From Nisaea sp. (GTDB lineage Bacteria > Pseudomonadota > Alphaproteobacteria > Thalassobaculales > Thalassobaculaceae): a DNA stretch of 64,000 nucleotides. The notes beneath the pieces are model-generated. The model saw only the letters and a list, made by a program, of their open reading frames with translations. It was not told where the DNA came from and did no database searches. Position 1 is the stretch's first letter. The number at the start of each line of letters is the position of its first letter. Positions 57,297-64,000 of this stretch are shown here, piece after piece. The position numbers were made by a program, and so were the translations under genes. The stretch is taken from the NCBI RefSeq assembly GCF_017640745.1, contig NZ_JAEPQA010000008.1:62001-126000 (forward strand), in the 5' to 3' direction.

Positions 57297-58001
57297 CTAG
57301 AGGCGGCGGGCGAACCAGATCACCCGGCCGACGATATTCACCTCCTCCAGGGTCCGCTCGTAATTCTGATAGCGCGGGCTCTCGGAGCGGATCAGCAGGC
57401 GCGGCGGCTCGCTGTTGGGGATGAGCTCGAGCTGCTTGGCGACCAGTCCGATCCCGTCATGCAGCACGAAGATCCCCGGCGGCGAGGGCGCGGTCCGGCT
57501 GAGGTCGATCATTACCTTGTCGCCGGACTGCAGCACCGGCTCCATGGAATCGCCGTCGATCGAAATGATCCGGAGATCGCGCGGCGCGGCGCGCAGCTCG
57601 TAGCGCAACCAGCCGGAATCGAAATACCAGTCGGTTCCGCCCGGCTCCTGCTCGAGGTGGGTGCCACCGCCGGCGGAGGCCGAAATCCGCACTTCCGGCA
57701 CGGCGATCACGCCCGCGCCACCTCTCTGGTCGGCCAGGGGCATGGGGGCAAACCGGTTCGGCCGCGGTGCCGCCGGAAGCGCGTCGCGATCGGCCCGCAG
57801 CACGGATTCGTCCACCCCGAGATGGCGGGCCAGCGCATAGCGCACGTCTTCCGGCAGCTTGCGCGGCGTGCCGCGATTGATGAACTGATGCAGATAGGCG
57901 TGGTTCTTGCCGCAGGCCAGCGAGGCTTTCTTGAGATCCGTCGGCGGGTCGCGGTGTGCCACCAGCTCGAGGATGCGCTTGCGCTGGGTATCGAGTTTCA
58001 T
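57297..58001 (-). CDS. S24-family CI/LexA-like repressor
   Basis: This 234-residue protein has an N-terminal helical DNA-binding region (LKKASLACGKNHAYLHQFINRG) and a C-terminal S24 peptidase domain with the Ser152 (IDGDSMEP) and Lys189 (GLVAKQLE) dyad. An Ala-Gly pair near residues 110-111 is a possible self-cleavage site. The family responds to DNA damage or phage state and represses nearby genes. It is divergent from the DUF6362 gene, with 227 nt between them. It may be phage-derived. Confidence 0.85.
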   Translation of the reverse strand: MKLDTQRKRILELVAHRDPPTDLKKASLACGKNHAYLHQFINRGTPRKLPEDVRYALARHLGVDESVLRADRDALPAAPRPNRFAPMPLADQRGGAGVIAVPEVRISASAGGGTHLEQEPGGTDWYFDSGWLRYELRAAPRDLRIISIDGDSMEPVLQSGDKVMIDLSRTAPSPPGIFVLHDGIGLVAKQLELIPNSEPPRLLIRSESPRYQNYERTLEEVNIVGRVIWFARRL

Positions 58002-60155: not shown

Positions 60156-61043
60156 TTACCGCCGAAAGCGTGGCGTCCAACTGTCTAGAAGGTCAGCGTC
60201 TTCATCCTCTAGATCTTCATCGCCCAGCCCCTCTTGCCCGATGCTCGTCGAAACGAGGACCGTCAGAACTTTACCGTACTGACCAAGACCAATCGACTCC
60301 TCGGAAACCAAGGATGGTTTAGTTCCGCCGAGCCAATCACGGACATCGACCTCGTCGACCACCTCCTCTCCCGCTACGACCGCGTCGCGCCGCTCCGCCA
60401 GTCGTGCCGTCTTAGTGCCTGGTGGTAGGGAAGAGCCTTTCCGCAACCAATCAAGTTTTGGAAGGGACTTCATCGCTTCAGACATGAAGCAGTAGTCGAT
60501 CGTCCCGTCTGTACTCACTATCACAGCTGCCGCGATGTCAGTGAGTTCTGCGAAGCGGATTGCTGTTGCTGTTCGAGAAGTTATGCAAATTTCCGCGACG
60601 GCCTTGATCGCATCGAGCCCTGGTTCGTAGCGGTTTAAGGCGCTGCGGAATGGCGTCTCTGGCATTAGAAGCCCGGCGGCGAAGTGATCGGCTTCCAACT
60701 CAAACAGGTCATTCGTCACGAACCCCGCGCGCGATACGTGAGGGCCGTCCTTCAGAACATGTTCGATGTGCCCTGGAAGAAAATAGTGTCCCAGTTCATG
60801 ACTCACGCTGAACCTTTGAAAGCCGAGGCTTGGGATATGAGTCGCATAGATAATACCAAACTCATTCCCGTGGCGCAGAAGCATGCCAGACACACCATCA
60901 TGCTCTTGAGGTTTGGCCTGCACGACAATATCGCGGCTCTCAGCAATGGCGAAGGGGTCGACAGGCAACTCCTTTATGCCTTCGTCTCTCAGAAATGCTT
61001 CAGCAGTCTGACGGGCGAGCTTCAGGCTAAAACGACGGCTCAT
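60156..61043 (-). CDS. ImmA/IrrE-family metallopeptidase, CapP-like
   Basis: The 295-residue protein has a zincin motif (His82-Glu83-Leu-Gly-His86 in SVSHELGHYF) and a downstream ELEADHFAAGLLMP block supplying the third ligand, as in ImmA, IrrE and CapP peptidases. The N-terminus (FSLKLARQTAEAFLRDEGI) is typical. Beyond residue about 150 is a mixed region that may be the GAF-like sensor of IrrE/CapP, ending in an acidic tail (GDEDLEDEDADLLD). It starts 5 nt after the HTH gene stop. Such peptidases cleave their partner repressor after DNA damage. Here the next operon is CBASS, so CapP is the best-fitting role. Confidence 0.85.
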   Translation of the reverse strand: MSRRFSLKLARQTAEAFLRDEGIKELPVDPFAIAESRDIVVQAKPQEHDGVSGMLLRHGNEFGIIYATHIPSLGFQRFSVSHELGHYFLPGHIEHVLKDGPHVSRAGFVTNDLFELEADHFAAGLLMPETPFRSALNRYEPGLDAIKAVAEICITSRTATAIRFAELTDIAAAVIVSTDGTIDYCFMSEAMKSLPKLDWLRKGSSLPPGTKTARLAERRDAVVAGEEVVDEVDVRDWLGGTKPSLVSEESIGLGQYGKVLTVLVSTSIGQEGLGDEDLEDEDADLLDSWTPRFRR

Positions 61044-61048
61044 ATTCC

Positions 61049-61393
61049 CTAATCTTTCTTGACCCGGCGGTTCGCTAGCATTTCCAGAAAATCACGGGCG
61101 ATCTCTCGGTCGCTGCCGGTAAGCTTTGCGACGTCACGAAATAGCGGGTCGCCATCTTGGGCAAGCTCAGGACTTTCGACACGTCCAAGCAGGTAGTCGG
61201 TGGTAATCTCGAGCGCGACTGCGAGTCGCCGCAAGGAGTCGAACGAAGGCTTCCGGCCTGTTTCGAAATGCGCGATCGAACTGGCTGGCATTCGAGCACG
61301 TTTTGCCAATTCTTCCTGACTGTAACCTCTTAATTCTCTGGCATTTTTCAGCCTTTGGCGGAAAATTTCTGATGCGTGCCCGTCTTCTGACAT
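61049..61393 (-). CDS. XRE-family HTH regulator, CapH-like
   Basis: The 114-residue protein has a helix-turn-helix at about residues 10-66 (FRQRLKNARELRGYSQEELAKRARMPASSIAHFETGRKPS), then a short C-terminal segment (FRDVAKLTGSDREIARDFLEML) that could oligomerise and hold the cleavage site. GGAGAAGA precedes the ATG, and the site overlaps one ATGTC-N6-GACAT palindrome, so translation or transcription of this gene is likely autoregulated. It pairs with the downstream metallopeptidase, as CapH does with CapP, and is divergent from the CBASS operon. Confidence 0.85.
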   Translation of the reverse strand: MSEDGHASEIFRQRLKNARELRGYSQEELAKRARMPASSIAHFETGRKPSFDSLRRLAVALEITTDYLLGRVESPELAQDGDPLFRDVAKLTGSDREIARDFLEMLANRRVKKD

Positions 61394-61407
61394 GTCTTCT
61401 CCGACAT
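61392..61407. promoter_or_regulatory. Candidate operator 1: ATGTC-N6-GACAT
   Basis: This inverted repeat overlaps the start codon and ribosome-binding site of the XRE regulator. It shares arms and spacing with the site at 61458. Bound regulator would block the XRE gene. Confidence 0.6.
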
Positions 61408-61457
61408 AAAAATCTTGACGCCAATTGCGACGCTCTTACATTTGAGACAGGTATCTC

Positions 61458-61473
61458 ATGTCGTTGGCGACAT
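61458..61473. promoter_or_regulatory. Candidate operator 2: ATGTC-N6-GACAT
   Basis: This copy is extended to 18 bp (CATGTCG-TTGG-CGACATG, 61457-61474). On the minus strand it fills the spacer between a possible -35 (TTGTCC, 61474-61479) and a weak -10 region near 61451-61456 for the regulator gene. It lies about 65 nt before the CBASS start, so it could also control that operon. Confidence 0.6.
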
Positions 61474-61539
61474 GGACAAGCAAATGATAGCGGCATGCAT
61501 GTTATTTTTACGAGCCGCGCCAGACACAAGGACTGACCC

Positions 61540-62826
61540 ATGTCCCACGAGCACCCGTTCCACCAATTGACCGCTCTCGACGAAGTTCTGCTAGATGTCG
61601 CTGCCCTCATTGAGCTCAGCCCTCGCGATCGGAGGGTTGCAGAAAACCGGTACCGGCTTCTCAAGGAGCACCTCGAACGCGACAAGAGCCCGCTGGCGCC
61701 TTACCTGATCGATGGCGTGAGCCTGATTTACGCTCAGGGTTCCGTCGCGACGAGTACTACGATCGTCAGTGGTACCGAGGACGATCGGTTTGATGTTGAT
61801 GCGATCGTTGAGGTCGACGTACCGACCAATTGGGATGACAGTCGGGCACTCGACGAACTTGAGAAAGCTCTGCAAGGCTTCCCGGGTGCAACCGAGATTG
61901 TCCGATGCACACGCTGCGTCCAGATTCGCTTTCCGTTCATGCATATGGATGTTGCCATCATGGATCGGCGTGAACGGATGACTCTTTCTCGGGCTGGGGA
62001 GATTTTTCACTCCCCGGACAGTGGGGACGCCTATCGCGTCGCCTCAAACCCGTGGGGCTTTACTGCGTGGTTTCGAACGAAAGTTGGGGTCGGCCAGAAG
62101 AAGTTCGCCGAGAGCCTGGGCCGACATCGAACTGCCGCGGGCCGCAATCGCCTCGACTTCATCAACGAGGAAGAGCGTTTGGTTGTGGCGAAAGCCGACC
62201 AGGCCGACCTCCCTCCCATTATCCCCAGCGAAATTGACGCTCAAGAGGCAGTCGCCTTGAAGCTGCTCAAGCGCTACTTGAACCTGCGTTACGAAGACCT
62301 CACCCTGAACCGCCCGCCGTCGATCTACCTTACAAAGAAGGCCGGGGACGTCGGGTTCGCGCCGCTGGGTCTGTCGATGCAACTCTTCGTGCTGGCCGAC
62401 TCGATCGCCAAGATCATGCGTGCACACATTCAGAAGGGCACGCGCCCGCTGGAGGTGAATCCGAGCTACCCCGCCGACAAGATCAACGACCGCTGGCCCC
62501 GTCCCGGACCCGATGGTCTCACTGATATGCGCACTCTCGCGGAGCAGCTTGAGCACCTGACGTCGGAACTGGTGAAGATCGCGATCGCCCCCCTTGTGGA
62601 GATAGCTAAAGCCATCGACGACCTGTTCGGCGAACGGGTTGGAAAGGAGCAGCGCGCGGTCTTGGCGGCACGGCACGACCGCCGGAAAGATCCAACTCCT
62701 ATTCTTTCGGCGGATCGTTCTGGGGCGATCCAGGCTCCTGCCATTGTCGTTTCGTCTGAACAGTATCGAGAAGTTCCTCGCCATAACTTCCACCCGTCGG
62801 TGCTGGACGGCGAGGATGACGAGTAG
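61540..62826 (+). CDS. CBASS CD-NTase (cGAS-like nucleotidyltransferase)
   Basis: This 428-residue enzyme has the polymerase-beta fold of CD-NTases. Gly67-Ser68 is in YAQGSVATSTT, the metal-binding acids are Asp85 and Asp87 (DDRFDVDAIV), and a third is Asp137 (HMDVAI). These enzymes make a cyclic oligonucleotide on phage infection. The C-terminal region is helical and ends in an acidic tail (VLDGEDDE), the part that E2-type partners are expected to act on. AAGGA lies 7 nt before the ATG. The E2-like gene follows after 7 nt. The product nucleotide cannot be told from sequence. Confidence 0.92.
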   Translation: MSHEHPFHQLTALDEVLLDVAALIELSPRDRRVAENRYRLLKEHLERDKSPLAPYLIDGVSLIYAQGSVATSTTIVSGTEDDRFDVDAIVEVDVPTNWDDSRALDELEKALQGFPGATEIVRCTRCVQIRFPFMHMDVAIMDRRERMTLSRAGEIFHSPDSGDAYRVASNPWGFTAWFRTKVGVGQKKFAESLGRHRTAAGRNRLDFINEEERLVVAKADQADLPPIIPSEIDAQEAVALKLLKRYLNLRYEDLTLNRPPSIYLTKKAGDVGFAPLGLSMQLFVLADSIAKIMRAHIQKGTRPLEVNPSYPADKINDRWPRPGPDGLTDMRTLAEQLEHLTSELVKIAIAPLVEIAKAIDDLFGERVGKEQRAVLAARHDRRKDPTPILSADRSGAIQAPAIVVSSEQYREVPRHNFHPSVLDGEDDE

Positions 62827-62833
62827 AGGTCAA

Positions 62834-63316
62834 ATGCGTCGATCCCCTGCTTCGCAGCTTGCGGCGATGCGCCGTCTTTGGCCCGACTTCACCGGACAGA
62901 AGCTGCCGGATGGGACATTGGCGTGGGCAGGTCCGCTACGGCCCAAGGCGCAGCTTTACAGTATCTCGTTGTTCTGGAAGCCGGGAGAAATGTCACTTCC
63001 GTATGTATTCGTCGACTCGCCCCCACTTGCGCCGCGGCCCGGCGGCGAATTCGCCGAAATTCCTCACCTGATATTCTATGAGGAAGAACCCACTCGTTCG
63101 GGACTGTGTCTGTTTGACCCTGAGGGACGAGAATGGTCGCCGTCAGACCTGATCGCAGAGACGACGATCTACTGGGCCGCTGAATGGCTGGCCTACTACG
63201 AACTGTGGCATCTTACAGGGGATTGGCTGGCGCCTGGCGTGGGATATGAAAGCGTGGCGCGCATGCATGCGAGTGAAGTGGAGACCATCAAGGAGGTGCT
63301 TGCCGATGTTCACTGA
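62834..63316 (+). CDS. E2-like protein of short type II CBASS (Cap2-like)
   Basis: This 160-residue protein resembles the prokaryotic E2 fold. A beta-rich N-terminus (LYSISLFWKPGEMSLPYVFV) leads to the HLIFYEEEP strand, a candidate catalytic Cys92 in SGLCLFDPEGREWSPSDLIAETTIYWAAEWLAYYELW, and the helical end. No E1 domain is fused, so this is the E2-only arrangement reported in short type II CBASS, where the E2 alone attaches the CD-NTase C-terminus to targets and primes it. AGAGG lies 4 nt before the ATG. The next gene overlaps by 11 nt. Confidence 0.82.
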   Translation: MRRSPASQLAAMRRLWPDFTGQKLPDGTLAWAGPLRPKAQLYSISLFWKPGEMSLPYVFVDSPPLAPRPGGEFAEIPHLIFYEEEPTRSGLCLFDPEGREWSPSDLIAETTIYWAAEWLAYYELWHLTGDWLAPGVGYESVARMHASEVETIKEVLADVH

Positions 63317-64000
63317 TCGGCGAGCCAACAGCCTTCAGACCACACGGCGCCGTCAGCCCTGGCCAAAGGATCAGACATTCAAGATCCTGGCGCTGGATGG
63401 CGGAGGGATAAAGGGCGTCTACACCGCTGAACTTCTTCGCCTATGTGAAGAAGAGTTCGGGCACGGGAAACCGATCTCTGACTTCTTCGACATGATAGCA
63501 GGCACGTCGACTGGCGGCATCATAGCCCTCGGCCTTGGCCTCGGGATTTCCACGGCAGACATCACGTCCTTCTACTGCGACGATGGGAGAAAGATCTTTC
63601 CGCCAGTACCAACAAGATTGTGGAGCAGGGTCCGCAAGTGGGTGCGTTGGCGATTTCTAGGTCCGAAGCTCGCGCACGAGGAACTGGAGAATGCGCTGAA
63701 ACGCCGGTTCGGGGATCACCTGTTGGCCGAGTCAGCGACTCGTATCGTTGTTCCTGCCTTCATGATGCCGAAGACCGAGATCGCAGTCTTCAAGACCGAT
63801 CACCATGAGGACTTTCGCAATGATCATCGGACACCGATGTGGCAGGTAGCCAGGTCGACATCGGCCGCGCCGACGTACCTGAAAGGCCATGAACACGAAG
63901 AGAGCGGAAGAATCTTCATCGATGGCGGCGTGTGGGCGAATAACCCGGTTATGGTCGCCTTGGTCGATGCATTGACCGCCTACGATCTAACACCGGACCA
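63306..64000 (+). CDS. Patatin-like phospholipase CBASS effector (CapV-like), partial at right edge
   Basis: The frame opens at the ATG at 63306 and runs off the window after 231 codons. The patatin fold is clear: oxyanion loop ALDGGGIKGVY (residues 29-39), nucleophile Ser68 in GTSTGG, and catalytic Asp206 in FIDGGVWANNP. In CBASS such proteins are activated by the cyclic nucleotide and degrade the inner membrane, aborting infection. The start overlaps the E2-like gene by 11 nt, so all three genes form one operon. The C-terminus and anything downstream are outside the window. Confidence 0.93.
   Translation, partial: MFTDRRANSLQTTRRRQPWPKDQTFKILALDGGGIKGVYTAELLRLCEEEFGHGKPISDFFDMIAGTSTGGIIALGLGLGISTADITSFYCDDGRKIFPPVPTRLWSRVRKWVRWRFLGPKLAHEELENALKRRFGDHLLAESATRIVVPAFMMPKTEIAVFKTDHHEDFRNDHRTPMWQVARSTSAAPTYLKGHEHEESGRIFIDGGVWANNPVMVALVDALTAYDLTPD

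What the first reader, a model, noticed from the sequence alone, without database searches (positions are those of the whole stretch)
61392..61473. Two identical-spacing palindromes ATGTC-N6-GACAT in the divergent promoter
Both copies have the same half-sites and the same 6-nt centre, 66 nt apart. One covers the start codon of the XRE gene; the other fills the spacer of a possible regulator promoter. This is the layout of a repressor that controls itself and the opposite operon.
Basis: seen in the sequence. Interest (0 to 1): 0.7.

Follow-up and report, generated by a model that had tools for sequence, protein, structure and literature searches.

The report
Switch controlling a bacterial anti-phage operon
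The two matching DNA palindromes are very probably docking sites for CapH, a known kind of repressor that keeps an anti-phage (CBASS) operon off until DNA is damaged; what is new is how the sites are arranged and that they change in step with the protein.

Summary
Both palindromes are real (61392-61407, 61458-61473, 66 nt apart), but their 6-nt centres differ (TTCTCC, GTTGGC). The XRE gene is capH and its neighbour capP, an ImmA/IrrE peptidase; the opposite genes are a CBASS operon (cyclase, E2, patatin). CapH/CapP is a known DNA-damage-responsive control module.

All 12 closest relatives keep the distal site, really three alternating half-sites (61446-61473). The extended motif occurs once in this genome. 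The proximal copy, over the capH ribosome site and start codon, is a perfect palindrome in none of those 12: its right half (GACAT, ending in the AT of ATG) is invariant, its left half drifts.

Across 20 diverse CapH loci, the start-codon half-site (mostly GACAT, GCCAT or GTCAT) recurs in the same locus's distal region in 16, against 6.8 under shuffling. CapH recognition-helix residues 35, 36 and 39 differ with it. A sigma-70-like CBASS promoter lies between the sites.

Best reading: CapH binds both sites, repressing CBASS and itself until CapP cleaves it. Binding is inferred, not shown. Ordinary in kind; the operator layout and helix/site correspondence are useful.

The parts
61392..61407 (.). 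proximal CapH operator, ATGTC-N6-GACAT, over the capH Shine-Dalgarno (GGAGAAG) and the first two bases of its start codon
   Evidence: exact palindrome; right half invariant in 13 of 13, left half at 3 of 5 positions; start-codon half-site covaries with the distal site
   Evidence: conserved in 12 of 12 closest relatives; 16 of 28 columns invariant against 2 of 59 in the cyclase leader; unique in the genome
61415..61442 (+). probable CBASS promoter TTGACG-N16-TACATT; predicted start of transcription about 61449, inside the distal cluster
   Evidence: promoter scan 9 of 12, 1 found against 0.2 in shuffles; CTTGACG invariant in 13 of 13; start site is inference from spacing
61450..61479 (-). possible capH promoter (TTGTCC ... 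GATACC) with the distal palindrome in its spacer; weak
   Evidence: CTTG mostly conserved upstream of the site; not found by the promoter scan
61049..61393 (-). capH, XRE repressor, 114 aa; recognition helix about 37-45
   Evidence: PADLOC capH 2.6e-24; Pfam HTH_3 2.3e-14; model
60156..61043 (-). capP, ImmA/IrrE-type metallopeptidase (HELGH motif), 295 aa
   Evidence: PADLOC capP 3.7e-67; Pfam Peptidase_M78 7.7e-12; PDB CapP 7t5t 4.9e-11; HELGH in the translation
61540..62826 (+). CBASS oligonucleotide cyclase (CD-NTase), 428 aa
   Evidence: PADLOC PDLC00813 1.3e-182; Pfam SMODS 7.4e-8
62816..63316 (+). E2-like protein; ORF listed from 62639, likely start ATG 62816
   Evidence: PADLOC E2 9.6e-52 over residues 65-225 of the ORF; start is inference
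63246..64000 (+). patatin-like phospholipase effector; ORF continues past the window to the equivalent of 64337
   Evidence: L002 5247-6338; Pfam Patatin 4.6e-28; PADLOC phospholipase effector 2.4e-108

Best explanation
The palindromes are operators of the repressor CapH. CapH dimers bind a three-half-site cluster that covers the start of CBASS transcription and the neighbouring capH promoter region, and a second site that covers the capH Shine-Dalgarno and start codon, 8 bp upstream of the CBASS -35. Occupied sites shut off both the CBASS operon and capH-capP. On DNA damage (for instance during phage infection) single-stranded DNA activates CapP, which cleaves CapH; the sites empty and both operons are expressed. 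Shown here: gene identities, conservation, the covariation of the start-codon half-site with the distal sites, and the correlation with recognition-helix residues. Inferred: that CapH binds, that binding represses in both directions, the use of the promoters. From published work on other CapH/CapP pairs: ssDNA activation and cleavage.
For: capH and capP models; CBASS genes opposite; distal site in 12 of 12 closest relatives; extended motif unique in the genome; start-codon 5-mer found in the own distal region in 16 of 20 representative loci against a permutation mean of 6.8 (0 of 20000), against 4.4 (maximum 11) in shuffled distal regions and 0 of 20 in an equally long capH coding stretch; by type 20 of 20 GACAT, 3 of 3 GCCAT, 4 of 5 GTCAT loci; residues 35/36/39 differ by type; distal and proximal regions of one locus resemble each other more than regions of different loci in 20 near and 26 distant CapH loci (0 and 1 of 20000 permutations; 0 of 200 shuffles each); the same GACAT sites stand before unrelated operons.
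Against: No binding data. Relatedness of loci is not removed by the permutations. The left half of the proximal site is degenerate (permutation p 0.033). Group A exceptions: L051, L052, L054, L039 and L036 do not have one of the three start-codon half-sites together with its distal match. L041, a 69% identical CapH on a viral contig, has a perfect proximal site but no distal cluster. Residues 36 and 39 are only 2 of 14 positions that separate the GACAT and GTCAT types, and 35 is 1 of 5 for GACAT and GCCAT.
Confidence: 0.87

Rival explanations
1. Only the distal cluster is an operator; the proximal palindrome is a ribosome site and start codon that happen to look similar.
For: The Shine-Dalgarno fills the centre; the left half is degenerate in relatives, position 4 keeping T in only 2 of 13; left-half permutation p 0.033.
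Against: The three bases before ATG have no need to be GAC, yet are invariant in 13 of 13 and switch to GCC or GTC where the distal sites do.
Confidence: 0.15
2. The proximal repeat acts in RNA: a 5-bp hairpin with the Shine-Dalgarno in the loop and the start codon in the stem lowers translation of capH.
For: The window sequence can form the stem (directly from the sequence).
Against: In the 7 distinct sequences among 13, pair 4-13 is formed in 2 and pair 1-16 in 4, and no pair shows a change on both sides. A DNA site explains the matching distal copy, an RNA hairpin does not.
Confidence: 0.04
3. The sites belong to another regulator of the host (an SOS-like or global factor) and not to CapH.
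For: No binding shown; 12 exact 16-mers exist in the genome.
Against: The sites travel with capH over alpha-, beta- and gammaproteobacterial plasmids and different operons, change with the CapH recognition helix, and the extended motif is unique in the genome.
Confidence: 0.04
4. CapH binds the region, but the dimer reads GACAT-N7-ATGTC (61446-61462) and not the reader's 5-6-5 palindrome.
For: The third half-site is conserved in relatives and perfect (ATGTC) in many; three half-sites allow either register.
Against: In the window the third half-site is CTGTC; the outermost half-site is as well conserved (4 of 5 columns against 3 of 5); the proximal site has the 6-nt spacing.
Confidence: 0.25

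Closest known systems
CapH/CapP module of CBASS (Lau et al. 2022, EMBO J; paper not held; known here from passages of PMC13373217, PMC10904395 and PMC10233336)
   Same: XRE repressor plus ImmA/IrrE peptidase next to a CBASS operon; both proteins match the PADLOC models.
   Different: Low sequence identity to the solved E. coli MS115-1 CapH domain (7t5u, 31%); the operator sequences of the published pairs could not be compared here.
DdrO/IrrE (PprI) of Deinococcus
   Same: Repressor removed by an ssDNA-activated metallopeptidase (PMC10904395, passages); DdrO is among the top Foldseek matches.
   Different: DdrO controls a dispersed DNA-repair regulon through the RDRM motif; here the extended motif occurs once in the genome.
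ImmR/ImmA of ICEBs1
   Same: XRE repressor with ImmA-type peptidase; ImmR is the best PDB sequence match of CapH (7t8i, 2.8e-7).
   Different: Controls an integrative element, not a defence operon.
CapW and CapK/CapS controllers
   Same: Other local repressors of immune operons that bind palindromes at the promoter (PMC9122588 and PMC13373217, passages).
   Different: WYL-domain or kinase/STAS proteins, no peptidase; CapS uses two different half-site spacings, this CapH cluster spacings of 6 and 7.

Membership tests
CapH/CapP module | XRE protein matching the capH model | tested here: met
   2.6e-24, 84.3 bits
CapH/CapP module | adjacent ImmA/IrrE metallopeptidase matching capP, with HExxH | tested here: met
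   3.7e-67; HELGH in the translation
CapH/CapP module | adjacent to an immune operon | tested here: met
   CBASS cyclase, E2 and phospholipase opposite
CapH/CapP module | CapH binds the promoter region | not testable with these tools
   only conservation and covariation
CapH/CapP module | CapP cleaves CapH when ssDNA is present | not testable with these tools
   known from published pairs (passages)
CBASS | CD-NTase plus effector, with an ancillary protein | tested here: met
   PDLC00813 1.3e-182, E2 9.6e-52, phospholipase effector 2.4e-108

The most novel reading that the evidence does not exclude
CapH promoters follow a simple protein-DNA code and a fixed plan: a start-codon-embedded half-site plus a distal cluster that flank the defence promoter, with recognition-helix residues 35, 36 and 39 setting the variable half-site base (M35-P36: GACAT; L35-P36: GCCAT; Q36-A39: GTCAT). 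Because one half-site is locked to the start codon, repressor, operators and divergent promoter move together as a cassette that can be set before unrelated immune operons (CBASS types, ubiquitin-like operons).
Probability: 0.45. Interest if true: 0.5.

Novelty: new member of a known kind. Interest (0 to 1): 0.4.

Why it matters
It gives exact, testable CapH operators in a divergent CBASS promoter, a sequence-based way to find and check them in other CapH/CapP loci, and a short list of CapH residues likely to set operator specificity. It supports the view that the control module is exchangeable between different immune operons.

Tried and rejected
RNA hairpin at the proximal site: no compensating changes in 7 distinct sequences, rejected. 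A further palindrome in the window, TGAGA-N6-TCTCA (61443-61458): within 1 mismatch in only 4 of the 12 closest relatives (L010, L012, L013, L014), so not taken as the operator. Symmetry of the proximal site beyond its right half: weak (p 0.033). CapH elsewhere in the genome: the extended motif has no second place; the other 10 exact 16-mers lie in long open frames. Terminator-like hit at 61433-61418 (-): 1 found against 0.5 in shuffles, ignored. A GTCAT-type promoter with a -10-like TATACG just upstream of the start codon (L037, L038, L050, L055), suggesting leaderless capH there, was seen but not tested.

Data handling: 66 loci had a CapH match with a CapP within 800 nt; 5 duplicates were dropped and 61 kept. 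32 scored above 70 bits (group A), reduced to 20 representatives at 80% identity; of the other 29, 3 were left out of the group B test (2 near copies, 1 with a truncated upstream region), leaving 26. Start codons were set by hand for 29 loci, 2 of them in group A (L036, L039).

Full report
What is there. Two exact copies of ATGTC-N6-GACAT lie at 61392-61407 and 61458-61473, 66 nt apart. Their centres differ (TTCTCC, GTTGGC). The first covers the Shine-Dalgarno-like GGAGAAG and two bases of the start codon of the gene at 61049-61393 (-). With up to 1 mismatch the window has 10 places against 1.01 expected, and the genome has 12 exact places, 10 of them in long open frames. The pair within 82 bp is what stands out.

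Genes. The XRE protein matches PADLOC capH (2.6e-24) and its neighbour at 60156-61043 matches capP (3.7e-67); the opposite strand carries a CBASS cyclase (1.3e-182) and an E2 protein (9.6e-52), followed by a patatin-like phospholipase effector (2.4e-108) that runs past the window end. A solved CapP (7t5t) is the only PDB sequence match of the peptidase at the cut-off. For CapH the best PDB sequence match is ImmR (7t8i); Foldseek gives no match below 0.001, with SinR, DdrO and the E. coli MS115-1 CapH domain among its first ten, on a model of mean pLDDT 74.9.

Close relatives. A scan of 84,980 species genomes gave 30 loci with a relative of CapH, 12 of them at 72-85% identity (L003-L014). All 12 keep the distal palindrome with at most one mismatch, followed by GAGATA- or GGAATA-like bases and a third half-site. 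In 13 sequences the distal cluster 61446-61473 has 16 of 28 invariant columns, the CTTGACG of the CBASS promoter 7 of 7, the promoter spacer 1 of 16 and the cyclase leader 2 of 59. The proximal site has 10 of 16 invariant columns: right half 5 of 5, left half 3 of 5. None of the 12 has a perfect proximal palindrome, though two more distant loci, L048 and L041, do. Nine of the 12 have the same cyclase, E2 and patatin opposite; L010, L012 and L013 have a different patatin first, and in L010 a different cyclase family, PDLC00783.

Wider relatives. Eleven plasmid loci were read (from 66 plasmid records with a match). GACAT sites stand before a patatin-DncV-ThiF operon (L045), a cyclase-TRIP13 operon (L046, L047) and a cyclase-phospholipase operon (L048); L049, L050 and L053 stand before multiubiquitin/ThiF operons with other half-sites. 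CapP homologues occur in 39 of 398 phylum genomes and 45 of 385 class genomes at 1e-25. Close CapH relatives are rare: 7 of 385 class genomes, and of 36 genomes of the order only this one.

Covariation. In 20 representative loci (80% identity) the five bases from -3 to +2 of capH were compared with the region -115 to -35 of the same locus: found in 16, against a mean of 6.8 when they are dealt out among loci (0 of 20000 as high), 4.4 (maximum 11) in dinucleotide-shuffled distal regions, and 0 of 20 in a coding stretch of the same length. By type: GACAT 20 of 20 loci, GCCAT 3 of 3, GTCAT 4 of 5 (L054 lacks it); four further loci have other start-codon words. On a CapH tree GCCAT needs 3 changes (2-3 in bootstrap trees, though starred branches force only 1) and L035 falls among GACAT loci, so the switch probably happened more than once. 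The left half at -14 covaries only weakly (58 of 100 matches against 52.0, p 0.033).

Protein side. All 20 GACAT loci have M35-P36, all 3 GCCAT loci L35-P36, all 5 GTCAT loci Q36 with A39. The model places the recognition helix at 37-45. These are 2 of 14 and 1 of 5 positions that separate the types, so part of the pattern may be ancestry.

Generality. Over 26 more distant CapH loci, distal and proximal regions of one locus resemble each other more than those of different loci (11.62 against 10.65 of 16; 1 of 20000 permutations; 0 of 200 shuffles). Two operator copies around the promoter therefore look like a general plan of the family, with locus-specific sequence.

Mechanism. The CBASS promoter TTGACG-N16-TACATT (61415-61442) sits between the two sites; its start of transcription should fall in the distal cluster. 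A CapH dimer there would block CBASS initiation, and the capH promoter region too; the proximal site would block the capH start region. Published work on other pairs says that CapP is activated by ssDNA and cleaves CapH (passages of PMC13373217, and PMC10904395). Binding, promoter use and autoregulation at this locus are inference.

Novelty. The module is known. The operators are a new member of a known kind. The held papers that name CapH (8, 6; I saw passages of three) gave me no CapH operator sequence, but the primary paper is not held, so I make no claim that this layout is unpublished.

Noticed in passing
window 61040-61540; G000: The module looks horizontally acquired: of 36 genomes of the order, 4 others in the genus included, only this one has the close CapH, while relatives sit on plasmids of alpha-, beta- and gammaproteobacteria.
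   Followed up: partly
L041 4850-5020: Viral contig with a 69% identical CapH and a perfect proximal palindrome, but no distal cluster; the upstream bases look like coding sequence.
   Followed up: no
L037, L038, L050, L055, upstream of capH: GTCAT-type loci carry CTATACG about 14 nt before the start codon with a TGACG-like -35 about 17 nt further up and no clear Shine-Dalgarno; capH may be leaderless there.
   Followed up: no
window 64000 onward (L002 9446-10126 and 12924-16652): Beyond the CBASS operon lie a RES-domain protein (7.9e-38), an AAA/SMC-like ATPase with a LmuB match (3.6e-20) and a metallophosphoesterase, so the area may be a defence island.
   Followed up: partly
window, 8 places listed away from the promoter: ATGTC-N6-GACAT with at most one mismatch is more frequent in the window than shuffles predict, also outside this promoter (10 against 1.01); unexplained.
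   Followed up: partly
window 57297-58001 (-): S24-peptidase-type (LexA/cI-like) regulator about 3 kb from capP (Pfam Peptidase_S24 3.3e-9).
   Followed up: no
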